A DNA stretch of 49,898 nt from a virus, in the IMG/VR virus record IMGVR_UViG_3300006030_000034, positions 1 through 49,898 of that record. One strand, written 5' to 3'. Both the position numbers and the translations under genes were made by a program. This document shows positions 7,268 to 48,115 of the stretch, piece by piece. The first letter of the stretch is position 1, and the number at the start of each line of letters is the position of its first letter. The notes below the pieces were generated by a model that did no database searches, was not told the DNA's origin, and saw only the letters and a program-made list of their open reading frames with translations.

Positions 7268-7313
7268 AACTGTCACACTACCTCTTCACAGGGGTGGTGT
7301 TTTGCCTTATAAT
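7268..7313 (+). promoter_or_regulatory. terminator/promoter module 2
   Basis: AACTGTCACA (7268-7277), TTCACA, 17-base spacer, TATAAT (7308-7313). Here the hairpin is weak. Drives the RNA ligase gene. Confidence 0.6.
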
Positions 7314-7334
7314 ACTCTCATACACACAAAGGAA

Positions 7335-8444
7335 ATGACTATCCGCAAACTCGCCAGCATCGCTGAAATCACTTACATCAAACCTATCGAAGGTGCTGAT
7401 GCTATTGAATGTGCCATCGTGAATGGTGGATGGCCCGTAGTGGTCAAGAAAGGTGAGTATCAAGTTGGTGATGTTGCCATCTATCTTGAGATTGATAGTT
7501 GGGTGCCTCACGAACTTGCTCCTTTCCTGAGTAAGGATAAAGAACCCCGTGAATATAACGGTGTGAAGGGTGAGCGTCTGAAAACTGTAAAACTCCGTGG
7601 TCAAATCAGTCAGGGTCTTCTGCTTCCTCTTACGATACCTTCCAACTATGATGAAGAACCTGCTTACGTCCACGAACCTGTTGGAGACCAAAGTAGGTGT
7701 TATATTCTTTATAACAATCTTGGTGATGATGTAACAGAAGAACTGGGTATTCAGAAGTGGGAACCACCTATCCCTGCTCAACTTCAAGGCACGATGAAGG
7801 GTAACTTCCCTCACTTCATTCCTAAAACTGACCAAGAACGTTGTCAGAATCTTCGTAAGGAAATCTTTGAGGAACACAAAGGTGAAACTTATGAAGTAAC
7901 TACCAAACTTGATGGTAGTAGTATGACTGTGTATGTCAAGAATGGTGAGATTGGTGTCTGTTCGAGGAATATTGACCTGATTGAAACTGAGGGTAATAGT
8001 TTCTGGAAGGCAGCACGGGAACAGAATATCGTTGATGCTTTGCTGGAAATCAGTAAGGATAAAGGGGAAGAGTATGCCATTCAAGGTGAACTAATTGGTG
8101 AGGGTATTCAGGGTAATCCTGAGAAACTCAAAGGTCAACGTTTCTACCTGTTTGACATCTACAGTATCACTGAGAGTCGTTATCTGAAACCTCAAGAACG
8201 ATACAGCATTATGGATAAGATGTATCTCAACTATGATGCTGATGTTGAACATGTCCCCTTTATTGACACTGTTTGTGGTGTCACTAACGAATTCAGCACG
8301 ATTGATGATCTTCTGGCATTTGCCGAAGGTCCATCGCTGAACCCTCAAACTAAGCGTGAGGGTCTGGTATTCAAGTCGTATGATAGTGATTTCACTTTCA
8401 AGGCAATTTCTAACTCGTATCTTCTGAAGCACAAGGATCGCTGA
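7335..8444 (+). CDS. RNA ligase, DraRnl (Rnl5)-like
   Basis: 369 residues; ATG 7335 has AAAGGA before it. The N-terminal ~150 residues (RKLASIAEITYIKPIEGADA ... VAIYLEIDSWVP) match the OB-like leader domain of DRB0094-type ligases. Motif I is TKLDGSS with the nucleotidyl-accepting Lys at residue 191; later EGLVFKS (motif IV) and FKAISNSYLLKHK (motif V) follow. The family seals 3'-OH/5'-phosphate RNA nicks using ATP; in phage it could repair host-cleaved RNA. Flanked by terminator/promoter modules, so a single-gene unit. Confidence 0.85.
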   Translation: MTIRKLASIAEITYIKPIEGADAIECAIVNGGWPVVVKKGEYQVGDVAIYLEIDSWVPHELAPFLSKDKEPREYNGVKGERLKTVKLRGQISQGLLLPLTIPSNYDEEPAYVHEPVGDQSRCYILYNNLGDDVTEELGIQKWEPPIPAQLQGTMKGNFPHFIPKTDQERCQNLRKEIFEEHKGETYEVTTKLDGSSMTVYVKNGEIGVCSRNIDLIETEGNSFWKAAREQNIVDALLEISKDKGEEYAIQGELIGEGIQGNPEKLKGQRFYLFDIYSITESRYLKPQERYSIMDKMYLNYDADVEHVPFIDTVCGVTNEFSTIDDLLAFAEGPSLNPQTKREGLVFKSYDSDFTFKAISNSYLLKHKDR

Positions 8445-10298: not shown

Positions 10299-10589
10299 AT
10301 GGAAACTCCAATGATTGAACTGAATGAAAACAATTATTGTGATCAAAAACCCATCATAATGTCGTTTTCATTTGAGGAGCACGATCTTCTCAATAGTATG
10401 CTGAATCACTTTCTTGACATTTATGATTTTGTCGGATATGGGGAGATTTATGATCTGCCAGAGAATTCAGAACTCAAGAAGCGTTATAATATGATTCTGG
10501 AAATGAAAGAACGCTCTCATGTTCTGTGGGCACATCGTTTTGATCATCCTCCTTATGACAATGGCAACCAAATCTCCTCTAAAAACTGA
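10299..10589 (+). CDS. hypothetical protein
   Basis: 96 residues from ATG 10299 (METPMIELNENNYCDQKPII). Helical and acidic (FSFEEHDLLNSMLNHFLDIY). No clear ribosome-binding site. Its end overlaps the deaminase-like gene. Confidence 0.6.
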   Translation: METPMIELNENNYCDQKPIIMSFSFEEHDLLNSMLNHFLDIYDFVGYGEIYDLPENSELKKRYNMILEMKERSHVLWAHRFDHPPYDNGNQISSKN

Positions 10590-10989
10590 AATTCTACAAC
10601 AGGCGATTGCGGTTGCCATGTCTTCTGATGCTCCAAAGAAAATTGGTGCGATTCTTCTCAAAAGAAATCGCACCATTTCATGTGCCGTCAATGATTATAA
10701 AAGAACTCATCCGGTTCAGTACTGGGCGGCACAAAGCGCGGCAAAGATCTGGAATAATCCACATCTTGAAAAGAAGGTATATCTTCATGCCGAAATTCTA
10801 AGTTTAATCAAGGCAAAGGAAGATGCCGATACGATTATTGTTTGTAGAGTTGGTGGACATCACGGAAATGAACTTCGTATGAGTCGTCCATGTGTGATTT
10901 GTTCTGAATATATTCGAAATTGTAGTCATATTGTTCATGTTCATTATTCCACCGAGAACGGATTCATGTATGAGTACTGGGGATCATAA
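10555..10989 (+). CDS. cytidine/deoxycytidylate deaminase-fold protein
   Basis: 144 residues. Zinc ligands are in the expected order: HAE (His at residue 78) and PCVIC (Cys 113 and 116). The N-terminal region (KKIGAILLKRNRTISCAVND) matches the beta-hairpin of deaminases. Substrate could be a nucleotide, nucleic acid or modified base; the sequence does not decide. The start could be either of two close ATGs (10555, 10561). Last gene before a late-promoter box. Confidence 0.7.
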   Translation: MTMATKSPLKTEILQQAIAVAMSSDAPKKIGAILLKRNRTISCAVNDYKRTHPVQYWAAQSAAKIWNNPHLEKKVYLHAEILSLIKAKEDADTIIVCRVGGHHGNELRMSRPCVICSEYIRNCSHIVHVHYSTENGFMYEYWGS

Positions 10990-10992
10990 ATA
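10985..10992 (+). promoter_or_regulatory. T4-type late promoter
   Basis: CATAAATA at the end of the deaminase gene, 11 bases before the first MKTFS gene. Matches the late consensus at seven of eight positions. Confidence 0.55.
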
Positions 10993-11002
10993 TCAATAAA
11001 AA

Positions 11003-11185
11003 ATGAAAACATTTTCACAGTTTCTTGAGGATACTGGTACTGGTAACTATGGTTCTTATGTGGATGAAAGAAAAAGACGAATAACAAATAAACCCTCTCC
11101 AACACAAGAATATAAGGAAAGAAGATTGGCATATATGCTTCAAAAAGACCTACCTCCACCAGAGTATAGGTCATCTGCAACATAA
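11003..11185 (+). CDS. small protein with capsid-targeting-like N-terminus
   Basis: 60 residues beginning MKTFSQFLEDTGTG, similar to the T4 capsid-targeting sequence MKTYQEFIAEA that directs internal proteins into the prohead. The rest is basic (ERKRRITNKP, KERRLAYMLQK). Preceded by a late promoter and followed by another. Capsid packaging is inferred from the N-terminus. Confidence 0.6.
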   Translation: MKTFSQFLEDTGTGNYGSYVDERKRRITNKPSPTQEYKERRLAYMLQKDLPPPEYRSSAT

Positions 11186-11188
11186 ATA
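11181..11188 (+). promoter_or_regulatory. T4-type late promoter
   Basis: CATAAATA overlapping the stop of the preceding small gene and 24 bases before ATG 11212. Confidence 0.55.
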
Positions 11189-11211
11189 TCTAAAAAGTAT
11201 TTGTGTAAAAG

Positions 11212-12198
11212 ATGTTAAACGAAGGAAACAAGCGTGACGAATACCTAGAAAAGAAAGGTGAAAGCACTAAAACCACTGCGATGAGAAAGTCCAGTGAAAG
11301 AAGAGGGCGTTTTAGTTCTGGTGACACTCATCAAAGCGCAAAAAGAGAAAATATCACCTGGACAAGACCTGGAACAAGAGGTTATGATGATTCATTAAAT
11401 CGTCAGAGAAAAAGTGCTCATCGTTCAGGAAGAGGCAGAACAAAACCTCAGGCAGGTACATCATCAGAACAAAGAAGGACCGATGCAATTTGGCAAAGTA
11501 GATTTCCAGAGGATCGTCCAAAAGGGAAATATGAAATACTTCAAGATAAAAAACAAAAAGGTCAACCAACTGGTATTGAAGCACAAAAACAAGGAATAAT
11601 AAGAAAAGGTGAAAGAAGAAGAGAACTTCGCACTCAGGCAGTGAATGCAATTCGCAGAGCAGTTGGTGGTGGATATGTGAATGAAACAAAGACCTTTGAA
11701 GAGTTTATGGTCGAAGCACATATGATTATGGAAAGACCCTATCAAATCTATGGACCTGATCCTCATGGACCTAGTGATTCTGAACCACAACCACTTGGTA
11801 AACCTTATAAAAACAAAAAGAGAGCAAAGACAAGAGCAGATAAGTTAGATCAGGAAATCGGTGGTTATCGCCATTTTGTTCGTAAAGTGGATGAAGAATT
11901 TAAAGACCTAACGCCAGAAAAGGAAGAAAGAGTTATGAATAGAGTCGGTGAACTCGCAAGAGATCTTCAAGTTCAATCCGGAAGAATGAAACAATTAAAT
12001 AAAAAACCATTTGGTAAGTACAGACCCAAAGTAAAGAAAGAAAAAGAGGCAATTATAAAATCTGCAAAAAAGAAACAAAATTTGGTTCAAAATGCTTCTG
12101 ATGCATTGATTCGAACCGGTGTGAGTCGTCAAGCAAAAATAGTGAAAAGAATTCATGATATCAATCAAAAATTAAGAGATCTTGGGGAAGAACCATGA
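11212..12198 (+). CDS. basic putative internal (capsid) protein with internal targeting motif
   Basis: 328 residues, very rich in Lys/Arg. The first ~155 residues are low-complexity basic (SERRGRFSSGDTHQSAKREN). At residues ~157-168 comes ETKTFEEFMVEA, a second copy of the capsid-targeting-like motif with a possible prohead-protease site after MVE. The C-terminal half is a charged helical domain. This suggests two fused internal proteins, or a precursor cleaved into a DNA-condensing and a second part. Coupled to the next gene by 4 nt. Confidence 0.6.
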   Translation: MLNEGNKRDEYLEKKGESTKTTAMRKSSERRGRFSSGDTHQSAKRENITWTRPGTRGYDDSLNRQRKSAHRSGRGRTKPQAGTSSEQRRTDAIWQSRFPEDRPKGKYEILQDKKQKGQPTGIEAQKQGIIRKGERRRELRTQAVNAIRRAVGGGYVNETKTFEEFMVEAHMIMERPYQIYGPDPHGPSDSEPQPLGKPYKNKKRAKTRADKLDQEIGGYRHFVRKVDEEFKDLTPEKEERVMNRVGELARDLQVQSGRMKQLNKKPFGKYRPKVKKEKEAIIKSAKKKQNLVQNASDALIRTGVSRQAKIVKRIHDINQKLRDLGEEP

Positions 12199-12821
12199 AA
12201 ACATTTTCAGCGTTCATTACAGAAGCAAATCGCAGAGCGCAAAGAGCATCCAAAGCAGGAAGAAAACCCAAGGAAGGTGAAAAATCAACATCCACCGAAA
12301 AACCATCTGCAGTTGTAACAGTTGGTCTTCCTGGTTCTGGAAAGTCAACCATCGCCAAACACATGGTATCGAAGGGTAATACTGATCAACATGAATTAGA
12401 TAAATCAAGGCAGGCACTTGGAAAAGGTCCTGCCTATTTTGGTTCTGATATTGTTCAACATACTTATTCGGGTGCAAAGAAGAGTGCGGCGCAGGGTAAA
12501 AACACTGTTCTTTCTAATACATCAATTCCAAGACAACATCGCCAGGATGCCATTAATAAACTTAAGGACTCTGGATATGATAAGGTGACTCCAGTTCTGT
12601 CACCAGGGTCAACAAAAGCGGCGATGAGACGCAATCGTAAAAGAACCGGATCCAAACCAGGTGAGGGTGCTGTTCCTCAATTTGTGATGAATCGTATGGC
12701 GCAGGGTATGCAACAAATGAGTCGTGATGAAAGAAGAGAGTTGAGATCAAATTATAAGAAACTTCATAAAAAAGAACGATTCACTAAACCTGCAATGAGA
12801 AGATCTGGAGCAATTCGATGA
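12195..12821 (+). CDS. P-loop kinase-like protein with capsid-targeting-like N-terminus
   Basis: 208 residues. MKTFSAFITEA matches the targeting motif, with a cleavage-type site ITE|A. After a basic linker comes Walker A GLPGSGKST (Lys 50), then a mid-domain NTSIPRQHRQD and a basic C-terminus, the layout of AAA_33/zeta-toxin/polynucleotide-kinase-type P-loops. It may phosphorylate a small molecule, RNA end or protein after injection. Substrate not decidable. Overlaps both neighbours by 4 nt. Confidence 0.65.
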   Translation: MKTFSAFITEANRRAQRASKAGRKPKEGEKSTSTEKPSAVVTVGLPGSGKSTIAKHMVSKGNTDQHELDKSRQALGKGPAYFGSDIVQHTYSGAKKSAAQGKNTVLSNTSIPRQHRQDAINKLKDSGYDKVTPVLSPGSTKAAMRRNRKRTGSKPGEGAVPQFVMNRMAQGMQQMSRDERRELRSNYKKLHKKERFTKPAMRRSGAIR

Positions 12822-13855
12822 AAACATTCTCAGAGTTTATTGAAGAAAGTTCAACTCCAGAAAGAGGGAGAAGAAGATTATCATCACGCGGACCTAAGAA
12901 AGATAGTTATCAAAGAGGAAAAGACAGAGAAGAGACTTCGAATAAAATAGCGGTCAAAAAAGCAGGATTTAAAACCAAATCACAAGATGGTCCACATGGT
13001 TCTTCTGACCATTATCATAGTAGTTCTAGGCATCATTCCACAAATATCGCATCTCATAAAACTCAGGCAGATTATGCACTTAGCACAGTAGATAGAAAAT
13101 ACGATAGATTTTCTTCTAGCAGAAGAGTTGAACCAACATCATCCAGAGTTTCTGGATTAAAAAAAATTCGTAGATTATTAAAAACAACAAGAACTGCTAA
13201 ACCAGTGCATGATATTTCAATTCACTCTGATGAGAGTGGTATTTCTAAAAATGATAGCAAAAGATTGATTTCAAGAGGAAAAAGTTTTAAGAAAGAAAGA
13301 AGAGGAGTTTCTGATGCTCTTAAGAATGCTGGTGCAAAAACAGGTGATTTTGCGGTAGGTGAACCTTATGGATCAATGCCACATGAAAATCCAGAAAAAG
13401 GTAAAAAAGTAAGAGCAAAATTATATGGTAAAGATTATGGTGTAAATCTTGATAAAAGAACTGGTAAAATGGTTGGTAGAGTAGGCACTTTTGAAGAGTT
13501 TATGGTAGAATCACAACAAGTTCTGAATAAAATCTCCAGAAATTACGGAAAAAGATATCGTGGTGTGAATGTGAATATCACTCATGATCCAAAGACAGAT
13601 AGTATTCGAGTCAATCAACTTTTTGTTCCACCAGAACTTCGAGGACAAGGAATTGGAACCAGAGTGATGAAGGGTCTTGGTAAGTATGCTGATAAAATAA
13701 ATAATCGAATTACATTGACACAAGATCCTGATAAGGGAAAGAAAGCAAAATTAACAAAGTTTTATAAGTCTCATGGATTTGAACCAAATAAGGGTAAAAA
13801 AAGAGACTTTACCACCAGAGACACTCATATTCGTCAACCCAAGAAAGACACCTGA
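12818..13855 (+). CDS. basic protein with GNAT acetyltransferase domain and two targeting-like motifs
   Basis: 345 residues. Begins MKTFSEFIEES; a Ser/Arg/Lys-rich region follows to residue ~220; then GTFEEFMVESQQ (about 223-234) and a C-terminal GNAT domain with VNQLFVPPELRGQGIGTRVM (acetyl-CoA binding Q/RxxGxG) and FYKSHGFEPNK (GNAT motif B). A packaged acetyltransferase could modify host proteins at entry, as T4 Alt ADP-ribosylates polymerase; that comparison is an inference. Ends in a terminator/promoter module. Confidence 0.65.
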   Translation: MKTFSEFIEESSTPERGRRRLSSRGPKKDSYQRGKDREETSNKIAVKKAGFKTKSQDGPHGSSDHYHSSSRHHSTNIASHKTQADYALSTVDRKYDRFSSSRRVEPTSSRVSGLKKIRRLLKTTRTAKPVHDISIHSDESGISKNDSKRLISRGKSFKKERRGVSDALKNAGAKTGDFAVGEPYGSMPHENPEKGKKVRAKLYGKDYGVNLDKRTGKMVGRVGTFEEFMVESQQVLNKISRNYGKRYRGVNVNITHDPKTDSIRVNQLFVPPELRGQGIGTRVMKGLGKYADKINNRITLTQDPDKGKKAKLTKFYKSHGFEPNKGKKRDFTTRDTHIRQPKKDT

Positions 13856-33729: not shown

Positions 33730-34137
33730 ATGGCATCAGAAATTACTCGAATTTCAAGATCATTCAGAGATATTAGTCTTTCATTTGAACCTCATCCGAT
33801 TACAAAAGATTTGCCGATTCTTCAAAATCAAAACTCGATTAATCGATCAATTCGTAATCTAGTAGAAACCATTCCCACAGAAAGATTCTTTAACTCAACA
33901 ATTGGATCAAATATTCGAGGTAGTATATTTGATATCATTGACTTTGCATCATCATCGATTGTTGAAGATCAAATTCGAATTTTAATTTCTAACTATGAAC
34001 CCAGAGTGAAAGACACAAAAGTTCAGGTGGAACCTCGTCCTGATTTAAATGAATATGAAGTCACAATTACCTATACCATTGTTGGTCAAGAAATACCATC
34101 TCAAGAATACTCCTTCATACTAGAGGCAACAAGATAA
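33730..34137 (+). CDS. gp25: baseplate wedge protein gp25
   Basis: 135 residues (T4 gp25 is 132). Contains ISLSFEPHPITKDLPILQNQ, SIRNLVETIPTERFFNSTIG and a C-terminal VEPRPDLNEYEVTITYT: the gp25/GPW (LysM-like-fold) pattern EPHP.T.D, IRNL..T..GERP/F....G. Sits first in the conserved order 25-6-7-8. One base separates it from gp6. Confidence 0.9.
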   Translation: MASEITRISRSFRDISLSFEPHPITKDLPILQNQNSINRSIRNLVETIPTERFFNSTIGSNIRGSIFDIIDFASSSIVEDQIRILISNYEPRVKDTKVQVEPRPDLNEYEVTITYTIVGQEIPSQEYSFILEATR

Positions 34138-34138
34138 A

Positions 34139-36052
34139 ATGCCGTTCACAAAATTTTCAAACCTGGATTTTGATCAGATTAAGACATCGATTAAAAGTTA
34201 TCTGAGAGCAAATTCAAATTTTACGGATTTTGATTTTGAGGGATCCAACTTTTCAATTCTGATTGATATGTTGGCATATAATACCTATATCACGGCATTT
34301 AATGGAAATATGAGTGCCAATGAGGTCTTTCTTGATTCTGCGGTTCTTCGTGAAAATGTCATTGCCAGAGCACGAGAGATTGGATATGTACCCGACTCCA
34401 AAACGGCATCAAATGCCGTGATATCCTTTGCGGTACAACCAAAAAGTACAACCAAAACTCTAACTCTACAGGCGGGATTGGTATGTACTGGAAATGCAAA
34501 TGGCACAAATTATGTCTTTTCAATTCCCGATGATACAACGGCAACAGTAATTAATGGTACGGCAACATTTAGTAATCTAATTATCAGAGAAGGTACTCTT
34601 CTCAAAAAACAATTTGTTGTGAACGGATCACTGGATCAAAAATTTGTTCTGAATAATTCATATATCGATACAAGTACGATTAGAGTTCATGTAAAAGGAT
34701 CCAGTGATAATGGCATTGGAAAACTCTATAATCAGGTGGACAATATTTTTGAAATTGATTCAACATCTGAAATTTATTTAATTCAAGAAATCTTAGATGA
34801 AAAATATGAGATTCTTTTTGGAGATGGGAGATTTGGGAAAAAACTTGAAAATGGAGCAATCATTACAGTTTATTATATGATTACCGATGGTAAATCGGGA
34901 AATGGCGCCTCCGAGTTTTCATTTGCAGGAACATTTAAAAATGAAAATGATGTTTTAGAAATTCCAAACAATACAATTACCATTCAGACTCTACAATCAT
35001 CTCGAAATGGTTCTGATATTGAAAGTATTGATTCCATTCGAAATTATGCTCCCAGACTTTATGCATCTCAATATCGTGCCGTAACATCCAGAGATTATGA
35101 ATCCATTATTAAATCAAAAATTTATAAGAATGCCGAATCAATTTCTGTTGTGGGTGGAGAAGAACTCGTTCCCCCTCAATATGGAAATGTTCTGATTAGC
35201 ATCAAACCTAAAAATGGAACATATATTTCTGATTTTGATAAACAATATATCAAAAATAAACTCAAACAGTATTCGGTTTCTGGAATTAATCCTCAGATTA
35301 TAGATCTGAAAATTCTTTATGTTGAAATCGATTCATCAATTTATTATAATGATTCCATGACTTCAAGTTCGAATGATCTCAAAACTCGAATTATTTCAAA
35401 TCTAAATGAATATTCACAGACAACTGATCTGAATTCATTTGGAGGAAGATTTAAATACAGTAAAGTTCTTCGTGTCATTGACAATACGGATACGGCTATT
35501 ACTTCAAATATCACGAAAGTCAGAATTCGTAGAGATTTGAAGGCATTAATCAATACTCGTACACAATATGAAATTTGTTTTGGGAATAAATTTCATGTGA
35601 ACCCCAACGGAAAAAATATCAAATCAACAGGATTCAAGATTCAGGGCGAAAACGACCTTGTATATTTTACGGATACTCCAAATTCGGATCTTAAAAAAGG
35701 TATCATATCTATTGTAAAGGAGATACCCGTAAGTAAATCAGGAGAACTTAAAACTCCAGTTATTGTACAATCTGCAGGAATCGTAAATTATGAGACAGGA
35801 GAGATTTCTCTGAGTCCAATGATCATTACATCCACTGTTTTATCTGATGATATAGTTGAAATTCAGGCATATCCAGAATCAAACGATATTATTGGACTTC
35901 GTGATCTCTATCTTTCTTTTGACATTTCAAAAAGTACAATAAATATGATTAAAGATGTGATAGCATCCGGGGACGATGTTTCCGGAACAGTATTTTCAAG
36001 TTCGGACTATTATAGATCGAGTTATTCAAACGGAGAACTAAAGAGGTTGTAA
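34139..36052 (+). CDS. gp6: baseplate wedge protein gp6
   Basis: 637 residues (T4 gp6: 660). Starts MPFTKFSNLDFDQIKTSIKS; MLAYNTYITAFNGNMSANEV and AVLRENVIARAREIGYVPDS are the classic gp6/baseplate-J-like words. gp6 forms the iris-like dimer ring around the hub. C-terminal half contains GDGRFGKKLENGAIITVYYM and the J-domain (NYAPRLYASQYRAVTSRDYE). Confidence 0.95.
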   Translation: MPFTKFSNLDFDQIKTSIKSYLRANSNFTDFDFEGSNFSILIDMLAYNTYITAFNGNMSANEVFLDSAVLRENVIARAREIGYVPDSKTASNAVISFAVQPKSTTKTLTLQAGLVCTGNANGTNYVFSIPDDTTATVINGTATFSNLIIREGTLLKKQFVVNGSLDQKFVLNNSYIDTSTIRVHVKGSSDNGIGKLYNQVDNIFEIDSTSEIYLIQEILDEKYEILFGDGRFGKKLENGAIITVYYMITDGKSGNGASEFSFAGTFKNENDVLEIPNNTITIQTLQSSRNGSDIESIDSIRNYAPRLYASQYRAVTSRDYESIIKSKIYKNAESISVVGGEELVPPQYGNVLISIKPKNGTYISDFDKQYIKNKLKQYSVSGINPQIIDLKILYVEIDSSIYYNDSMTSSSNDLKTRIISNLNEYSQTTDLNSFGGRFKYSKVLRVIDNTDTAITSNITKVRIRRDLKALINTRTQYEICFGNKFHVNPNGKNIKSTGFKIQGENDLVYFTDTPNSDLKKGIISIVKEIPVSKSGELKTPVIVQSAGIVNYETGEISLSPMIITSTVLSDDIVEIQAYPESNDIIGLRDLYLSFDISKSTINMIKDVIASGDDVSGTVFSSSDYYRSSYSNGELKRL

Positions 36053-36053
36053 T

Positions 36054-39000
36054 ATGAGTCAAGCCGATTTTGAGGCAAGAGTAAAGATTCAACAAATTAT
36101 TGAGAATCAACTTCCTGAATTTATACTGGATGAAAGTCCTCTTACATCAGAATTTTTAAAACAGTATTATATTTCACAAGAATATCAAGGAGGTCCAGTT
36201 GATATCCTTGAAAATATAGATCAATACATCAAACTCGATAACTTGACACCAGAAGTTATTGTAGGTTCAGTTGATCTGGCATCTAATATTTCTTCATCAT
36301 CTGGAATTATTACTGTTACTTCAACCAAAGGTTTTCCTCAAAATTATGGATTACTAAAAATTGATGATGAAATTATCACCTATACTGGTATCACAACAAA
36401 TACCTTTACAGGTTGTATTCGTGGATTTTCTGGTGTTAGTAATTATCATCAAAATTTAAATTCATCTGAACTTGTATTTTCCGAGTCTTCTGCAACATCT
36501 CATCAAAAAAATGCAGAAGTTCAGAATTTAAGTTCATTATTTTTAAAAGAATTCTATAAAAAAATTAAATATTCCCTGACTCCTGGGCTTGAAAATATAG
36601 ATTTTGTTTCCGATTTGAATGTTGGGAATTTCATAAAAGAAGCGAGAACTCTTTATGAGTCCAAAGGTACAGACGAATCATTCAGAATTCTTTTCAATAT
36701 TCTTTTTGGAGAAAACCCCAGAGTCATTGATCTCGAACAATTTTTAATCAAACCATCAGGAGCAACATATCTAAGAAGAGATGTTGTTGTTGTTGATGCA
36801 ATTTCTGGTAATCCATTAAATCTTGAGGGTCAAACTATTACCAAAAATGGTGATCCAAAAACTACAGCATCTGTTTCCGAAGTTGAAACAATTGGTCGTA
36901 ATGGAAAAACATATTATAAACTCCTTCTTTTTGTTGGTTATGATGAGGCATTTCCATCAATTACTGGAAATTTTGATATTACTGGAAGTACTAAAAACAC
37001 CAAAGAAGTTTTTACCAGTGATACAGTAATCACAGTTGATTCTACCATAGGATTTCCGGAATCTGGTAAGATTTATTCTGGAAATAATACCATAACATAC
37101 ACGAATAAAAGCATTAATCAATTTTTTGGATGCTCGGGTATTATTGAAACTATATCCCCCTCATCTTTAATTCGTTCGGATGAAACATATTATGGATATG
37201 AGAATGGAGATTTAACCAAGAAAGTAGAATTTAGAATCACGGGAGTTCTTTCTGATTATAAAACTCTCACCGAAAATTCTATCTTAGAAGAGGGTGAGTA
37301 TATTGGAATTAAAAATATTGGCGAAAGTATTGAAAATCCAATTACATCTAAAACATATAAACAAGTATTTGCAAATAGTTGGATTTATAATACACAATCG
37401 GAATATACCAATTCAACGAATATTGCTTTAGAGTACAATAAGATTACATCAAATGTTCAGAATGTGTATAATGAAAATGATGAATACATGTATGTTGCAT
37501 CAAATTCACTACCTTCATATAATATAACAAACAAACTTTTTTCATATAATGCAAGTGGTGTAAACGGATATGATGTTGAATCTGATTCATATACAATTAT
37601 TACATTTAATGAAAAAATTTCTTTTATTACGGGAAATGAAGTTTACTATAAATCATCATCATCTTCAATAAAAAATCTAGAAGAAGGATATTATTTTGTA
37701 GAGGTCATTTCAGATACCGAAATTAAATTATATTATTCAAGATCCGTAATTGAATCATCCGATTATATTAAATTTGGTTCTTTATCTGAAGGAATTCATA
37801 CATTTACACTCAGATCACAAAAAGAAAAAGTATTATCACCTCAAAAAATTCTTCGGAAGTTTCCTCTATCTGTTAATATTGGAAATGATGAATCAGAAGA
37901 GACTCTGAGTGGTTCTACTGGAATACTAATCAATGGAGTTGAAATATTAAATTATAAATCAGAAGATAAGATCTATTATGGTCCACTTGAAAAAATTAAT
38001 GTTCTTAATGGAGGAAGTGACTATGATGTAATTAATCCACCTTCTCTTGTCCCATCTACTGGTAATGCAAAAATTCAACCTGTTGTAAAGGGATCAGTTA
38101 AAAAAGTTTATGTAGATCCACAAGAATTTGATATTGATGTAATCGTATCGATTGCGCTCACAGGTGGTAATGGTAAAGGTGCATCATTTAAACCTGTAAT
38201 TCAAAAAAGAAGAAGAGAAATTCAATTTGATGCAAGACAAATTGAATTTGGGGGTGGAATTGATGTAACTAATGAAACTATATCCTTTAATGTGCCACAC
38301 GGATTAATTAGAGGTGAAACTATAGTATATCGCCCTGATAATAATCCTCTATTAGGAATTGGCACATATAAAGGAAGCAATCTCAATACAGGAAATACTC
38401 TTAAAAAAGATAGCATTTATTATGTAGGTTTTATCAATGACAAGACAATTCAACTTTATAATTCTCTTTCAGATTGCAATTCTGGGATTAATACCGTAGG
38501 TTTTACGACAATTGGCACTTCTGGAATTCAAAAATTTGCAACAGATCCTAAAAACACATTAACTGGGATTGAAGTATTAAATGGTGGGGAAAATTATACA
38601 AGTAAAGAAATTAAAGTATCTCCAGTAGGAATATCTACAATTAATGATACAATTACATTTAAAAATCATGGACTTGAATCTGGTGAAATTATTACATATA
38701 CATATCAAACAACATCAGTTTCAGGATTATCTTCAACCAATCAATACTATGTTATCAAATTAAATTCAAATCAATTTAGACTTTCCGATGCAGGAATAGG
38801 TGCAACTATAAGATCAAATTATGAAAGAGGTAAATATGTCTCATTCAGTTCAACTGGATCTGGATATCAAATCTTTAATTACCCTCAAATAAATTTGAGT
38901 GTAGAGTATTGTGCAGTAGGACTTGGTAGTACTCAATTCAAAGGTACAATAAATGCTGTTCCTGTGATTAGAGGTGAGATTAGTGCGGTTAATGTATATG

Positions 39001-42000
39001 AATACGGATCAGATTATGGATCAACAATTTTAAATTTACACAAAAAACCAACAATTCAAGTCAAAACTGGAAAAAATGCTCAATTGTTTCCCATCATTAT
39101 TGATGGGAAAATTACAAAAGTTTCTGTCCAGTATAGTGGAACTGAATATTACTCAATGCCAGATATTGAAGTCATTGGTTCAGGTAAAGGTGCCATACTC
39201 AGACCCGTAATTCAAAATCAAAAGATAACAGAAGTTATCATTGAGAATGGTGGTTCAGGATATTCATCTGATGATACAATACTTAAAGTGAATCCAACGG
39301 GAAAAAATGCAATTTTTGACCCCCAGGTAAGATCATTGGTGGTTAATAACAATATTCTTTATAATGATAAAAACGATTCAACTAAATTCGCAAACGAAAT
39401 AATTAGTCAATCTTATAATAATTTACAATATAGAATTTGTGGATATTCTAAATTAGTTCAAAATGCTTTTAATGATGATGGATCCAAACACTCTCCAATT
39501 ATAGGTTGGGCTTATGATGGAAATCCAATTTATGGTGCATATGGATATTCGGATCCAGATAATATAAACTCAGATTTAAAGGCGTTAACACCTGGTTACA
39601 CATTAAATACTGAAAATATTGAGAACAGACCATCAGGATTTGTAAGTGGTTTTTTTGTAAATGATTATAAATTTACGAATTCTGGAGATTTAGATTATTA
39701 TAACGGTAGATACTGCATTACACCAGAATTTCCAAATGGAGTCTATGCCTATTTTTCTACAATAACAACTGATAGTAATTCAAATGTTGTTGGTCAATTT
39801 CCATATTTCATAGGAAATGAATATAGATCCAGATTTATTACCGACAATAAAACTTTAAATCAATCATTTAATTTTAACAATTCCAATCTTACTAGAAATG
39901 TCTATCCTTATATTTCAGATTCAAATTACATAGCAAATAACTTTGTAAGTAATTCAGATAATTATGTGTCATCTGTCGAGTCGGTTTTTTCTGGATCTAT
40001 AGATGACCTTGAAATCATAAACTCTGGAGACAATTACAAAGTTGGAGATACTCTTGAATTCGATGAATCGCAAACAAATGGTAGTGGATTAAATGCAATT
40101 GTTTCTGAAGTTAATGGAAAAGAAATTATAAAAATTGAAACTTCTAATGAATTTTATGATAACGCAATATTTACATGGAAAAATGGAAATGAAATTGAAG
40201 TTAAAGTAGAACCAAAACATGATTTAAAAAACTTAGACTTTGTAACCACTTCAGGATTTACAACATCTCTATCTCAATTAAATGAAACAAATCAGATTAA
40301 TGTTACTTCATATTTCAGTATATTAACTTCGGATTTACCTTCTTCTGGAATTGTAACTGATATATATGTATCAAATATACCAGAAAGTATTTCAATTGGA
40401 AGTTCAATTGGTATTGGAACAGAGACTTTAAAAGTACTTAATGTATATAATGGAATTATAAGAGTTATTCGTGGAAATACTGGAATTTCTCATACTGCAA
40501 CAACGACAATTAGTTTTATTCCAGATACATTTACAATTGGAAAATCATTAGATTATTTTGAGTCTGAAGTCAATGATTTAATATATTTTAATCCAACTCA
40601 ATCTGTTGGTGTTGGCACAACCTCTGGTATTGGAATTGCAGTTACCAATAACATTGGCATTCAAACTAATAATGTCATTTCAATTCCAACTCAATCAATT
40701 TATCTACCAAATCATCCTTTCAAAACAAATCAAGAAGTAATTTTTACAAAACCTTCAAGTGCATCCGCAATTTCTGTCGCAAATACATCAGGAAGCACGG
40801 CATTTAATCTACCTTCAAGTGGAAATAGTCAAACTGTTTATATTATTAAAAAGTCTGTAGATCATATTGGAATTGTCACTCAGATTGGATTAACTACAAC
40901 AACAAGTGGTTTATTCTTTATAAACAATGGTTCTAATGATTATCAGTATTCATTACAGTCAAACTTCACCCAAGTAAAAGGTGATGTTGAAAAAATTGTA
41001 ACTCAGGTTTCAGTTTCTACATCACATGAACTCACTTCTGGTGATACAATTAATCTTTCAGTAAAACCAAATCTCTCTGTTGGTATTGGCACTTCTACTG
41101 CAGTTAGAATAAACTACAACCAAACATATAACAAATTATTGGTTAATCCACTATCACTTACTGGGAATAATGTATCTGGTGTTGGCATCTCCTCACAATT
41201 TAGTTATACACTCCCAACTAGAGTTGCAACTTTAAATACTGCAGTTGGAATAGCTTGGACTGCTGGTGCAATTTCCCCTACAGCAACTAGAAATACCCAA
41301 CAAGTTTATGATTATATTTGGGATAATTATAACCAATTTGATATTGATGGGGATGGGGTGGTAAGTTATAATGATGGATTTATGATTATATCTTATCTTT
41401 TTGGACAACCAAATATTACAACTGGAATTACATTTCCACAAAATGCAATTAGAACAACAAATGCAACATGCTACGCAAGATGTGGTATAGTTAGTTCTTA
41501 TTTTGATGTTGATGGTAATGGATTAACACAACCTCTTGCAGATGGTCTTTTACTTGCAAGATTTGCCTCTGCACCAGGAGACGATTCTCCAAGTTCTCAA
41601 GGATATAATGTGGCTCCAGCAGTAAAAAATTCTGGTAATGTTTTATATATTCCAAGTCATGGATTTAAAACAGGTGATAAAATTTTCTTAGATTATTTTA
41701 TAAACAATAAAAAAGAATATTTTGTTTATAAAATTGATAAAGATACTATTAATATTTGTGAGACATATAACGATTGTATTTCAAGTCCCCCAATTACAGT
41801 CAATAATTTTTCTTTTACAACCGCAACTATTGCTCCAATCAATCCAGAAATTACTTCAGTCAAAAATAATAATCTTGTATTTGATTTAACTGATTCATCT
41901 CTATCCGGATATAATTTCAAAATATTCTATGATCAAGACTTTAAAGATGAATTTGTTTCTACGGGGTCTACATCTACTTTTTCCGTAAGTGGTGTAGGAA

Positions 42001-45000
42001 CAGTTGGGGTATCAACCAATGCTTCTTTAACAATTAATTATAGTGAAGGTTTACCATCTCAACTATTCTATACCTTAGAGAAATCTGGTTACATCAGCAC
42101 TGCTGATAAAGAAGTTCAAAATTATTCTCAAATTAACTTTATTGATAGTTATTATAATGGTTCTTACAAAATCTCTGGAGTTGGGACAACAACATTTAGT
42201 ATTTCATTAACAAAATCACCTGAAAAAAATTCATACATTCAATCTGAATGCGATGTGTTAAGTTATACCACAAACTCAACAACTGTATCTGGTGGAGTAT
42301 CCAAGATTAAAACAATTTCATCTGGATATAATTATAAAAAATTACCAATTTTCACCAAAGTAGTTTCTGATAACGGTAGTGGTGCTTACATTAAACCTAT
42401 ATCGAATAAGATAGGTAAAATTAATAGTGTAAAAATCTTAGATGAAGGTTATGAATATTCTTCAGATAAGACATTAAAACCGGATTCATATATTTCTGAT
42501 TTTGTCTCTATTAAAAACTCAAATTATATAAAAACAATCAATATTGAAAATGGTGGTAATAACTATATTACTGAACCCAAATTAGTTATTATTGATTCTA
42601 TAACAAAGGAAACAATAAATTCAGGATCTCTAAATCCTATTCTTCAAAACGGATCAATTTTTTCTGTAGATATTTTAGACTCACCTAAAGGACTTTCTGA
42701 AACTCCTGTTACAATTAAAGCAATCAATAATACAAATGGAGTATCAATTCAATCCATAAAATATTCTTCTTCTGGAATTGTAACTTGTTACTTATCCACA
42801 CCATTAAATGGATTCTCTATTGAACCATTTTCTAATGGCGATAAAATTTTTGTTGAAGGAATACAAAAAGATTCTAGTGAGGGTACTGGATTTAATTCAG
42901 AAGATTATGGTTATGAGTTCTTTGAAGTTAAAAATTATCAGGGATCCGGTGGAAATCAAAGAAGATTTGAATATGATTTATCTAAATTGACCATAAATGC
43001 TGGAATTTTGAAAACTTCAGATAATATTTACGGAACAGTTATAAATTATAAAAACTATCCAACATTTATTCCAATTCAAGATTCATCTGATTTTATATTA
43101 AACGAAAAATTACTTTTAAGCACTGCATTCGGATATCAAGAAATTGATTTAAAAGTTGTAAAATCAAATAAAAACTATATTAAAGTGCTGGGGAGTTATA
43201 ATCTTCAAGTAAATGACATAATAAAAGGATCTAGATCGGGATCAATTGCAACCATAAATGAAATAAAAGTATCTTCTGGGCATTTTATTGTTGAGTTTTC
43301 ATCAAGAAAAAATATTGGTTGGTTAGATAATACAGGTAAACTAAATGAAGATACTCAGGTAATACCAGATAACAATTATTATCAAAATTTATCATATACA
43401 ATAAAAAGCAATCAAGATTGGAGTACAATAGTAAGTCCAGTAAATGGAATTCTTCATACCAGTGGACTGAAGAATTTTGCTGATACTCAAATTATGAATT
43501 CAACTTCAATTGAAATTAATTCAAATGATTTTAGTGATTATCTTTATAATATTATAGATGAATTTAGAGTAGATTCAATTAATAATTTTGATTTAAGTCG
43601 TGATGTTGATAATTTTAATAGCACTTCTAAATTATTAGAATTTAGCAATCATAAATTTACGGATTATATTGAATGTATTACAAATAGAGTCCTTGACCTT
43701 GATGATATTAGTTTTGAATTTTCAACTTCAGATTCAAAATTAGATCCATTTTTAGTCTTAGATGAAATTATACCGTCTAAAAAATATAACAAGTATCTTG
43801 TTCAAGTTACAAATAATGATTCTTCACAAATTCAATTTACTGAACTTGTGGTTTTAAGTAATGGTAAAAATATCTATACTTTAGAAAAAGGGAGTTTAGA
43901 TAATATAACTTCTGCAAGTATTGGGTATAATTCAAATCAAATAGCGAACATATATGGATACGTTGATGAATTAGAACAAGCATATTTAAGATTTGATGCA
44001 ATAAAAGATCCTTATGATACTTCTTACAATATTAAATATTTAAATACATCATTTGAAAACTATTCAAGTGGAATTGGAACGACTTCTATTGGTTTTATTG
44101 ACTTAATTTCATCAACAAACACAGTTTCATCTGGACTGTCTACTGTAATTACATCTAAACATACAGGGAAAATTAAATCAATCTACTCTGAGATTAATTT
44201 AATAGACAATATTACAAATGAAATGAATTATGTTGAATTATACATCGATCATGACGGAACAAATACAAACATTTCAGAATTCTATTTTGATACAAATGAT
44301 GGTTCAAGTTCTAATTTCATAGGATCTTTTGGTGCCTCTATATCTCCTGGAGGTATATTATCATTAAATTATACGAATACTTCAACCAATTCTGTAACAG
44401 TAAGATCTAAAAATGTTGGTTTTGGTACTACTGCGATTGGAATTGGAACTTACAGATTCAAATTTAGTGCTCAACCAGATGATACTGAAAAAACAGTAAA
44501 GTATGATGCACTGTATTCGAATGTTTCTTCTGCATCTACAATTATTTCCTTTGATAAAGCAAAAATTTCATCCATAAAGTCAATAGTAAGAATTGGAATT
44601 GGTAGTACCAGTTCACTTCATCAAGTTATGATGATTTGTGATTCTACCAATACTCAAACTCTACAGTATCCATTCCTTTCTATTGGAAGTACGACAGGAA
44701 TTGGTACATTTGGCGGTGAAATAAATGGTGGAACTGCATCATTAAAATTCTATCCTGATAATAACATATCTGGAAATTTTGAGATTCTAAGTTTTAATCA
44801 AAGTTTTTATTCTGAAAACGATTATAATCCAATAAATCAACCTCCGAATTTAATTTATAACAACATAAATGAATCTTTTGGAATTAAAAAATATTTTGCT
44901 ATCAATGATGAAGATACGAATAAACTAAATTTTGATTTAACATATAATAATCAGTATATCTTTAAAAAAGTTTTTGACCCTTCAGATACAAAAATACTAA

Positions 45001-48000
45001 CTCCTAGCACCGGAGAATTTAATATTGATCATTTCTTCAGTACAGGTGAAGAAATAATTTACAGACCAAAATCTACTTTTGTTGGTGTGGCAACTCAATC
45101 AATGGTATTTGGTTCTTCAACTGATTTGGATACAATAAATCCAGTTTATGCGATAAAAATATCATCGAATAAATTTAAAGTTGCAAGTACAAAAAATAAT
45201 GCTCTTTCTGGAATAGCTTTAACATTTACTTCTATTGGATCTGGTAATGCTCATGAATTTGAAATGGTTAAAAAGAATGAAAAATCTATTATTACTATCA
45301 ATAATGTTATTCAATCTCCAATTTCATATTCTCTATTAAGTTATAATGTAAATAACGGGACAAACATTGGAGTAGAAAATACAATTTTTGGATTGAGTGG
45401 TATATCATCTATAATTATTGGGGATATTCTCAAAATTGATGATGAATACATGAAGATTACAAATGTTGGATTAGGTACAACATACTCTGGTCCAATTTCT
45501 TTTGGAGGAACATTTCCTCTAGTAGAAGTCAAAAGAGCATTTGTTGGATCAGCATCTTCAATTCATACAAATGGATCAGGTGCCACAATTTATAGAGGAT
45601 CATACAATATTGTAGGTAATGAAATATATTTCACAGAAGCGCCTGATGGAAATGTTCAAGATCAATTAAATGTTGATTTAGATAATCTTACAGAATCTAG
45701 AGCAACATTTAATGGAAGAATTTTCCTTAAAAAGGATTACACTGAAAATCAAATTTATGATAATATAACAGAACGATTTACTGGTATTGGACAAACTTAT
45801 ACTCTAACAGTTGGTGGAGCAAATACAGTCGGTCTTGGTACATCTGGTGGTAGTGGTATTGTGTTAATTAATGGAATATTCCAGGCACCAACAACAGATA
45901 ATAACATAGATAATAATTTTAGAATAATAGAAAATACTGGAATTAGTAGTATAGTTTTTTCCGGTATTAGATCTGAAACTGGAAGTGGTTCTTTTATATC
46001 ACAGAGTGATGTGAATATGAATCAACTACCTAAAGGTGGATTGATTGTATCTCTTGGTTCAACTCCAGGTCTTGGATATGCGCCATTGGTTGGCGCATCG
46101 GTTACGGCAATAGTTTCAGGAGGAGTGATCACATCAATTGGAATTGGTACAACAGGCAATTGGGGTTCTGGATATAAATCCCCAGTATCAATTGCTGTCA
46201 CAGAAAGTGGTGGTTCAGGTGCAGTTATTAATGCTATTGTAGGAACTGGAGGTACACTTTCATTTAATATTGTTGATGGTGGAACTGGATACAACAATCC
46301 TTCTATCATTATACCCTCTCCAAGTTATCAAAATCTTTCTGTTACAGGTGTATCCAGAATAGGAATTGGTTCTACAACAGATACAGGAGTTGGACTATTA
46401 ATCAATGTTGAAGTAGGTTCAAGTTCTACAACTGGAATAGGATCCACCTTATTCGAAGTTAAAAATTTCAAAGTTGTTCGTTCTGGATATGGTTTCAAAA
46501 AAGGGGATGTTATAAAACCTGTTGGACTTGTTACGGCATATGGTTTACAATCTCCATTATCAGAATTTGAATTGACTGTTCTTGAAGTATTCAATGATTC
46601 TTTTTCTGCATGGCAGTTTGGTAAACTTGATTATATAGATTCTATAAAAAATCTTCAAAATGGAACTAGAACTCGTTTCCCATTATATTATAATTCACAA
46701 TTATTAAGTTTTGAAAAAGGTTCTGGATCTGAATCAGAACTTATTGATATGGATTCACTATTAATTATTTTCATAAATGGAATTCTTCAAAATCCTAAAA
46801 CAGCATATGAATTTAATGGTGGTACAACATTCAATTTTGTATACCCTCCAAAGAAAGAAGATAATATTTCAATTTTCTTCTATAGAGGTAGTTCATCTGA
46901 TAGTCAAATAGTAAATTCAACCGAATCTCTAAAAGTTGGAGATTCAGTACAACTGATTAGTTCAAATTCAAATCTTAAAAATACAATAACACAGAACTCT
47001 CGAATTGTATCTGGAATAGTCACATCAGATACAATTCAAACAGAACTTTATAATTTACAGGGCATAGATACTCAGAATTATAAACCTGTAATTTGGACAA
47101 AACAAAAAGTAGATAAAGTCATTAATGGTGAATTTGTTTCAAAATCTAGAGATTCTATAGAATCTCAAATTTATCCAACTGCGAAAATAATTAAAAATAT
47201 AACAAGTACTGATTCTGAAATTTTTGTCGATAACGCACAATTCTTCAATTATGAAAATGTTGGAAGTCCTAGTTTTGATGGTTTAATTATTTCTGGTTCT
47301 GTGGACGCTGTTTCTGCCGCTGTAACAGCAGTTGTTTCAACATCTGGTACGATACAGTCATTAGTTATTGGAACGCCAGGAAGCGGTTATACTGGGTCTT
47401 TTGTCGATGTAAAAATATCCGCTCCAATTAAGATTGGAGTTGGAATTGGAACAACCGCAACAGCTCTTGCAACAGTAGGTGTTGGTGGAACAATATCCTC
47501 CATTTCAATTGTTAATCCTGGATTTGGATATACCACTTCAATTGTCCCTCAGGTAATTATTCCATTACCCAAAGCAATTTATGAAAATATAACTAATGTA
47601 AATTCAGTTTTGGGTAATACTGGAACAATTACTGGAATTGGTAGCACTGTTGGTATTGGAACAGATTTAGCAATCAAATTCACCCTTTCATCTACTACAA
47701 ATCTTGTTGTAGGAAATCCAATTTATATTTTTGATACTAAGGTCGGAAATTCAGTAACTTCAATTTACACAAATGATTCAAGTATAGTGGGATCTGGAAC
47801 AACATTCCTTGATAATATCTACAATATAAGTGGAATAGATGTATCTACAGGAATTATAACATGTAATGTTCATTCCAATTCAGCATTGGTTGGTATTGCA
47901 ACTACTGGAAATGTAGGTAAGTTTTCTTGGGGTAAATTATCTGGATTTACCAGATCATCATCTCCTGTTTCGATTGCAGTTTCTGGATTTAATGTTGATT

Positions 48001-48083: not shown

Positions 48084-48090
48084 TAAATGC

Positions 48091-48098
48091 TAAATATA
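48091..48098 (+). promoter_or_regulatory. late promoter-like box
   Basis: TAAATATA, close to the late consensus TATAAATA, 18 bases before gp8. Confidence 0.35.
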
Positions 48099-48115
48099 TA
48101 AAAAACTATATTCAA

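What the first reader, a model, noticed from the sequence alone, without database searches (positions are those of the whole stretch)
11003..13855. Cassette of candidate injected proteins with capsid-targeting motifs, including a kinase-like and an acetyltransferase protein
Seen: four consecutive genes; three begin MKTFSQFLED, MKTFSAFITEA or MKTFSEFIEES, and two carry an internal copy (KTFEEFMVEA, GTFEEFMVES). Known: T4 internal proteins and Alt use MKTYQEFIAEA, cleaved by the prohead protease at (L/I)xE|(A/G/S), to enter the capsid. ITE|A fits this; MVE|A and MVE|S are near. Inferred: these are packaged and injected; the P-loop (GLPGSGKST) and GNAT (RGQGIGTRVM) parts would be host-modifying effectors, with the basic stretches binding DNA. 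The internal motifs suggest processing into several proteins.
Basis: partly seen in the sequence, partly recalled or inferred. Interest (0 to 1): 0.75.

Follow-up and report, generated by a model that had tools for sequence, protein, structure and literature searches.

The report
Head-packaged effector gene cassette
This T4-like virus, a relative of freshwater Synechococcus phages, carries a row of genes whose proteins begin with a T4-style 'pack me into the head' tag and include enzyme-like parts; in a related phage every protein with that kind of tag had already been found in purified virus particles, so these are probably injected into the host with the DNA.

Summary
Four ORFs (11003-13855, +) carry three N-terminal MKTFSxF[I/L] tags and two internal copies; the DNA pattern is expected 0.03 times by chance and occurs three times. 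All four proteins are basic. ORF3 is a polynucleotide-kinase-like P-loop protein; ORF4 ends in a GNAT acetyltransferase. The tag fits the mutational rules of the T4 capsid targeting sequence (residues 4/7 target, 8/10 process). The four largest related genomes with long records encode gp21 prohead protease, and gp23 of two has a matching FLxE|A site. In IMG/VR relatives the tag sits on 35 unrelated protein families. Independent check: in S-CREM2 all 5 CDS with a tag-like N-terminus were detected by published virion mass spectrometry (52 of 219 overall; p = 0.0006, regex partly post hoc), and the virion NMNAT of S-SCSM1 is tagged. The internal copies lie at gene-fusion joints: the GNAT is a separate tagged gene in relatives. 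Best reading: a modular cassette of head-packaged, probably injected effectors in the style of T4 internal proteins, with fused modules possibly cut apart by the prohead protease. Packaging is supported through relatives; injection, cutting at internal joints and host targets are inferred. New variant of a known kind.

The parts
10986..10992 (+). ATAAATA, late-promoter-like box just upstream of ORF1 (four of five relatives have CTAAATAACAATAAAAA-ATG here)
   Evidence: all 11 ATAAATA in the window are on the + strand, but the number is not above chance
11003..11185 (+). ORF1, 60 aa, basic, tagged protein of unknown function
   Evidence: homologues in S-SRM01, L008, L014, L016, L210
11003..11035 (+). 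N-terminal tag MKTFSQFLED-T: F4 and F7 present, Asp at position 10 (predicted targeted but not cut)
   Evidence: D10 also in the S-SRM01, L008 and L016 homologues
11184..11202 (+). short AT-rich inverted repeat (AAATA...TATTT) directly before ORF2, kept in relatives and also before the L018 cassette gene
11212..12198 (+). ORF2, 328 aa, pI 10.2, multi-module protein without an N-terminal tag
11689..11718 (+). internal tag copy KTFEEFMVE|A of ORF2, at the joint to the 'PYQIYGPDPHG' module
   Evidence: the same joint in L008, L014 and L210
12195..12821 (+). ORF3, 208 aa, polynucleotide-kinase-like P-loop protein
   Evidence: AAA_33 1.6e-10, phrog_505 polynucleotide kinase 6e-14, mammalian PNKP in PDB, alignment with T4 Pnkp
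12195..12227 (+). N-terminal tag MKTFSAFITE|A (full match to the T4 CTS and cut rules)
12324..12350 (+). Walker A, GLPGSGKST
12818..13855 (+). ORF4, 345 aa, two fused modules: basic module of unknown function plus GNAT
12818..12850 (+). N-terminal tag MKTFSEFIEE|S (full match)
13484..13513 (+). internal tag copy GTFEEFMVE|S at the fusion joint; the start Met of the stand-alone gene is replaced by Val
13511..13852 (+). GNAT module (ORF4 residues 232-345), a separate tagged gene in relatives
   Evidence: Acetyltransf_7 4.3e-8; stand-alone in L012-L016, L019-L021, S-CRM01 and B23

Best explanation
The cassette encodes head-packaged cargo of a T4-like virus related to freshwater Synechococcus phages. 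The N-terminal MKTFxxF[I/L]xE[A/S] works like the T4 capsid targeting sequence. Phe4 and Phe7 bring the proteins into the prohead core; the gp21-type prohead protease then cuts after Glu10 (ORF3, ORF4), while ORF1 (Asp10) is packaged uncut. The internal copies mark where separate tagged genes were fused; the protease probably cuts there too, so ORF4 would give a basic protein (residues 11-231) and a GNAT acetyltransferase (232-345), and ORF2 would give two basic pieces. On infection the proteins pass into the cell with the DNA and act before any phage gene is expressed. Most likely jobs: the PNK-like protein heals cut nucleic-acid ends (the window also encodes an Rnl1-type RNA ligase), and the GNAT acetylates a host protein; both fit counter-defence or take-over. 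Shown: the sequence features, homologies and fusion anatomy. Shown in relatives by others: virion presence of tagged proteins. Inferred: packaging in this virus, cutting at the internal sites, injection, substrates.
For: Tag statistics. Positional fit: among 21 non-redundant N-termini from the window and related loci, selected on MK[TS][FY]..[FY] only, position 10 is E in 15 and D in 4, position 8 is I/L/M in 18, position 11 is A/S/G in 17; in T4 IPIII residues 4 and 7 target, 8 and 10 process, and D10 blocks processing but not targeting (PMC9026906). Relatives encode Peptidase_S77 gp21, and gp23 of S-SRM01 and S-CRM01 has FLSE|A or FLAE|A near the expected maturation site. Virion proteomics: S-CREM2 Table 3; all five CDS matching M.{0,2}[FYL]..F..E were detected (52/219 overall, p = 6.5e-4; p = 4.4e-5 without annotated structural proteins): SAM hydrolase, APH/ChoK-like kinase, cytidylyltransferase, gp13, gp136. 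The NMNAT found in S-SCSM1 virions starts MKSFLQFLKEA. T4 control: the tag pattern finds only ipII, ipIII and 61.1. Tag on 35 unrelated families in IMG/VR loci. In 11 divergent ART-like proteins the tag residues M1 K2 F4 F7 I8 E10 A11 are invariant. Fusion joints.
Against: No virion data exist for this virus. The S-CREM2 regex was fixed after seeing the N-termini of its virion proteins; the narrower pattern set before, M[KRN]?[KRN][TSNR][FYLI]..[FYL] with a 35-aa minimum, matched the starts of only two annotated CDS (both detected), alongside an internal start within gp122 and ORFs that are not annotated genes. Virion lists can contain co-purified proteins, as the S-CREM2 authors say. In S-SCSM1 the other tagged gene (gp30) is not labelled a virion protein, and two further regex hits there look like ordinary structural proteins by sequence. 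The 35-family count comes from a scan that selected on the tag itself. ORF2 lacks an N-terminal tag, so its packaging is the least certain. Internal sites have Met at position 8, not Ile/Leu. Retention of the motif at joints could be inertia of recent fusions. gp21 is not in the window or in the 61-kb near-identical contig; both are fragments.
Confidence: 0.75

Rival explanations
1. Core or scaffold role: the tagged proteins are prohead-core components, needed for head assembly or DNA condensation, not effectors; the kinase and GNAT folds are incidental.
For: Strongly basic proteins; in T4 the IPs co-assemble with the core.
Against: Content changes from phage to phage and includes enzyme families (GNAT, PNK-like, ART-like, cytidylyltransferase, glucosaminidase, RlpA-like), as expected of cargo. 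T4 IPs are reported as not essential for assembly and as counter-restriction proteins.
Confidence: 0.1
2. The tag is packaged and processed, but the proteins act late in the producing cell or are passive passengers; nothing is injected.
For: No injection data for cyanophages were found; the S-CREM2 authors note that some detected proteins may be highly expressed proteins not separated from virions.
Against: T4 proteins carrying this tag are injected and act in the host.
Confidence: 0.1
3. MKTF..F is only a favourable translation start or the shared start of duplicated genes, without a sorting role.
For: The cassette contains tandem, partly related genes (S-SRM01 QPX48132/48133), and the start codons are similar.
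Against: The same residues sit on 35 unrelated families, at internal positions without a start codon, and correlate with virion presence.
Confidence: 0.05
4. Internal copies are not cut: they are remnants of gene fusion, and ORF2 and ORF4 stay single chains (this rival concerns only the processing part and can hold together with the best explanation).
For: Position 8 is Met; the fusions may be recent; no cleavage data.
Against: At several joints the tag's targeting half has decayed while a hydrophobic-x-E|A remains (L211 'SIEE|AKYEK', L008/L210 'YVSE|AKV'), as expected if only the cut site is needed. Not tested for selection.
Confidence: 0.4

Closest known systems
T4 internal proteins IPI/IPII/IPIII with the capsid targeting sequence MKTYQEFIAE|A
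   Same: Tag length, F/Y4 and F7, I8, E10|A11; basic, variable proteins behind a constant tag; gp21 protease and a matching gp23 site in relatives.
   Different: Cargo here includes recognisable enzyme families (PNK-like, GNAT; in relatives ART-like and others); internal tag copies at module joints; ORF1 has D10; ORF2 has no N-terminal tag.
Virion-associated enzymes of cyanophages (NMNAT/cytidylyltransferase, APH/ChoK-like kinase, SAM hydrolase in S-CREM2 and S-SCSM1; PMC10665884, PMC9602691)
   Same: Tag-like N-termini; detected in virions by mass spectrometry; proposed by their authors to act on host entry.
   Different: The passages read in those papers name no packaging signal; different enzymes, not one cassette of the present composition.
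Polyvalent proteins (Iyer et al. 2017, PMC5512222; e.g. phage P1 DarA/DarB)
   Same: GNAT modules, often beside ART domains, predicted to be delivered from the head; annotated phage hits of our GNAT include DarB-like proteins.
   Different: There the modules sit in one large polypeptide; here they are mostly short separate genes, each with its own tag.
T4 Pnkp (PseT)
   Same: P-loop kinase domain, Walker A, residues aligning with D35, R122 and R126; an RNA ligase in the same genome fragment.
   Different: No 3'-phosphatase domain; R38 and D85 not kept in this alignment; ORF3 carries the head tag, T4 Pnkp does not.

Membership tests
T4-type internal (head-packaged) proteins | N-terminal CTS with aromatic residues at 4 and 7 | tested here: met
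   ORF1, ORF3, ORF4; not met by ORF2, whose copy is internal
T4-type internal (head-packaged) proteins | gp21 site: I/L at 8, E at 10, A/S/G at 11 | tested here: met
   ORF3 ITE|A and ORF4 IEE|S met; ORF1 (LED|T) not met; internal sites have M at 8
T4-type internal (head-packaged) proteins | gp21 prohead protease in the same genome | tested here: inconclusive
   Absent from the window and the 61-kb near-identical contig (both fragments); present in S-SRM01, S-CRM01, B23, G004 and 5 of 10 larger tagged contigs
T4-type internal (head-packaged) proteins | Protein present in the mature head | not testable with these tools
   No virion data for this virus; in S-CREM2 5 of 5 tag-like CDS were detected in virions
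T4-type internal (head-packaged) proteins | Injected into the host and active there | not testable with these tools
   Known for T4 IPs, no data here
GNAT acetyltransferase (ORF4 C-terminal part) | Pfam GNAT profile over its cut-off, including the acetyl-CoA loop | tested here: met
   Acetyltransf_7 33.8 bits (cut-off 27); RGQGIG loop
5'-polynucleotide kinase (ORF3) | P-loop kinase domain related to PNK | tested here: met
   AAA_33 41.9 bits (cut-off 27), phrog_505 6e-14, PDB PNKP hits
5'-polynucleotide kinase (ORF3) | Full set of catalytic residues of T4 Pnkp | tested here: inconclusive
   K15/S16, D35, R122, R126 equivalents kept; R38 and D85 not, in one alignment; residue roles from own knowledge
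Polyvalent proteins | Several effector domains in one delivered polypeptide | tested here: inconclusive
   ORF4 has two modules, one of unknown fold; only weak fold matches for the first (pLDDT 69, Z below 8)

The most novel reading that the evidence does not exclude
T4-like phages of cyanobacteria run a general, plug-in protein delivery system: a constant 11-residue tag is shuffled among dozens of unrelated effector modules, fused modules keep the cut site at each joint, and the prohead protease turns tagged polyproteins into sets of effectors inside the head before injection.
Probability: 0.4. Interest if true: 0.8.

Novelty: new variant of a known kind. Interest (0 to 1): 0.62.

Why it matters
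Cyanophage virion proteomes repeatedly contain kinases and NAD-related enzymes, and the passages read do not explain how these enter the head. A T4-type tag offers a simple explanation and a way to list likely head-packaged, injected proteins from sequence alone. Proteins that act before any phage gene is read are good candidates for counter-defence. If the fusion joints are cut, the head protease would also be a processing enzyme for effector polyproteins.

Tried and rejected
Chance occurrence: rejected. Late-promoter enrichment: ATAAATA lies upstream of ORF1 and ORF2, but its total number is not above chance; kept only as a lead. PADLOC: no useful hit (mad8 at 4e-4 is probably a generic P-loop match). 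Pfam and PHROGs: nothing convincing for ORF1 and ORF2. Fold of the ORF4 N-terminal module: model pLDDT 69; Foldseek best E 0.28; VIA-align rows, all below Z 8, mix GNATs (AcrVA5, TacT, AAC(6')-Ib) with nucleases and sphingomyelinases, so undecided. ART-like neighbour gene of relatives (L012): Foldseek weak (best E 0.03), but the 50 VIA-align rows shown are ADP-ribosyltransferase-like structures (toxin, ParT/RES and Tpt1/KptA types), best Z 8.3, rmsd 3.3, 107 aligned: likely ART fold, function untested. Joint analysis: many listed rows are long linkers of one cytidylyltransferase family, not fusions, and were not counted. Literature search found no description of this tag in cyanophages in the open library; most subscription papers are not held.

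Full report
WHAT IS THERE. The window is a 49,898-base fragment of a T4-like virus: gp25-, gp6-, gp7- (4009 aa) and gp8-like genes lie at 33730-49681. By the cassette, its nearest named relatives are freshwater Synechococcus phages (S-SRM01, S-CRM01) and B23. The four reported ORFs are present as described. Three start MKTFSxF; the DNA pattern occurs three times against 0.03 expected. ORF2 carries only an internal copy. ORF2/ORF3 and ORF3/ORF4 overlap by 4 nt. All four proteins are basic (pI 9.4-11.0).

THE TAG. In T4 IPIII, residues 4 and 7 of the 10-residue capsid targeting sequence direct targeting, residues 8 and 10 direct cleavage, and Asp at 10 stops cleavage but not targeting (PMC9026906). 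ORF3 (F4, F7, I8, E10|A11) and ORF4 (F4, F7, I8, E10|S11) satisfy all of this. ORF1 has L8 and D10, and D10 recurs in its S-SRM01, L008 and L016 homologues, so ORF1 is predicted to be packaged uncut. Among 21 non-redundant tags from the window and related loci, chosen on MK[TS][FY]..[FY], the free positions follow the T4 rule: E or D at 10 in 19, I/L/M at 8 in 18, A/S/G at 11 in 17. gp21 is found in S-SRM01, S-CRM01, B23, G004 and in 5 of 10 larger tagged contigs, and gp23 of S-SRM01 and S-CRM01 has FLSE|A and FLAE|A near the expected maturation site. The window itself is too short to test for gp21.

INDEPENDENT TEST IN VIRIONS. The published virion proteome of S-CREM2 lists 52 of 219 proteins (PMC10665884). 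All five CDS matching M.{0,2}[FYL]..F..E are on it: SAM hydrolase MKDFDSFLEE, APH/ChoK-like kinase MKRFDAFLTEE (GTG start), cytidylyltransferase MKNFSSFLTEA, gp13 MKDLHSFLTEQ and gp136 MQTFSMFFSED (Fisher p = 6.5e-4; 4.4e-5 when the 24 annotated structural proteins are left out). This regex was chosen after looking at that list; the pattern used before it, M[KRN]?[KRN][TSNR][FYLI]..[FYL] with a 35-aa minimum, matched the starts of two annotated CDS, both detected. Of the detected proteins without this N-terminus, gp12 (Cas9-like) has LRFASFMAEA near its start and gp15 starts MNFSEFNES. In S-SCSM1 the virion NMNAT begins MKSFLQFLKEA, while the small tagged gp30 is not labelled a virion protein. 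In T4 the pattern picks only ipII, ipIII and gene 61.1.

BREADTH. Pfam names some: cytidylyltransferase, glucosaminidase, RlpA-like double-psi barrel, DUF5661, DUF6267 and GNAT. A further family next to the GNAT gene in relatives (L012-L014, L095, L211) has the pattern of ADP-ribosyltransferases; its tag is the best conserved part of the alignment, and its model (pLDDT 77) matches ADP-ribosyltransferase-like structures throughout the 50 VIA-align rows shown, best Z 8.3.

FUSION JOINTS. ORF4 is a fusion: its last 122 residues match a separate gene starting MKTFSQF or similar in L012-L016 and, more distantly, L019-L021, S-CRM01 and B23, while its first 222 residues match a separate gene in L017/L018. 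The internal GTFEEFMVES lines up with the start of the separate GNAT gene, its Met replaced by Val. ORF2 has the same kind of joint before the PYQIYGPDPHG module (window, L008, L014, L210). At other joints the Phe residues are gone but a hydrophobic-x-E|A remains (L211, L008, L210). This is what separable targeting and cutting would predict, but the sample is small and selection was not tested.

FUNCTION. ORF3 is related to polynucleotide kinases (AAA_33 1.6e-10; phrog_505 6e-14; PNKP chains in the PDB); against T4 Pnkp it keeps the P-loop and residues aligning with D35, R122 and R126 but not R38 or D85 (residue roles from own knowledge). The window also encodes an Rnl1-type RNA ligase at 7302-8444 (phrog_968, 2.8e-89), so nucleic-acid end repair is a plausible job. 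The GNAT resembles those of polyvalent proteins, which often sit beside ART domains and are thought to modify proteins (PMC5512222). T4 internal proteins block restriction enzymes after injection, which makes counter-defence the leading guess.

VERDICT. Packaging in this virus is inferred from relatives; cutting at internal sites, injection and targets are inferred and untested.

Noticed in passing
window 7302-8444 (+): Rnl1-type RNA ligase (phrog_968, 2.8e-89), a possible partner of the PNK-like ORF3.
   Followed up: partly
window 36054-48083 (+): A single 4009-aa gp7-like baseplate wedge protein between gp6 and gp8; only its first 1333 residues were scanned.
   Followed up: partly
L004 6347-7231, L008 856-1749, L014 1678-2556, L016, L017: DUF6267-like proteins lie just upstream of the cassette in relatives (Pfam 8.8e-68 for L014); they contain a K-x-D-G motif like nucleotidyltransferase ligases, and in L102 a DUF6267 protein carries the tag. 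The window has no DUF6267.
   Followed up: partly
S-CREM2 OR473000 7704-10313 (-): The protein annotated as Cas9 and found in virions has a tag-like LRFASFMAEA near residues 17-26.
   Followed up: partly
T4 AF158101 18966-19130 (-): T4 gene 61.1 starts MKTFKEFIKE, so it may be an unrecognised head-targeted protein.
   Followed up: no
window 11184-11202 and G003 145802: A short AT-rich inverted repeat AAATA(C/T)...AGTATTT stands directly before cassette genes in several relatives.
   Followed up: partly
window 10519-10989 (+): dCMP-deaminase-like gene directly upstream of the cassette (phrog_174, 3.3e-15).
   Followed up: no
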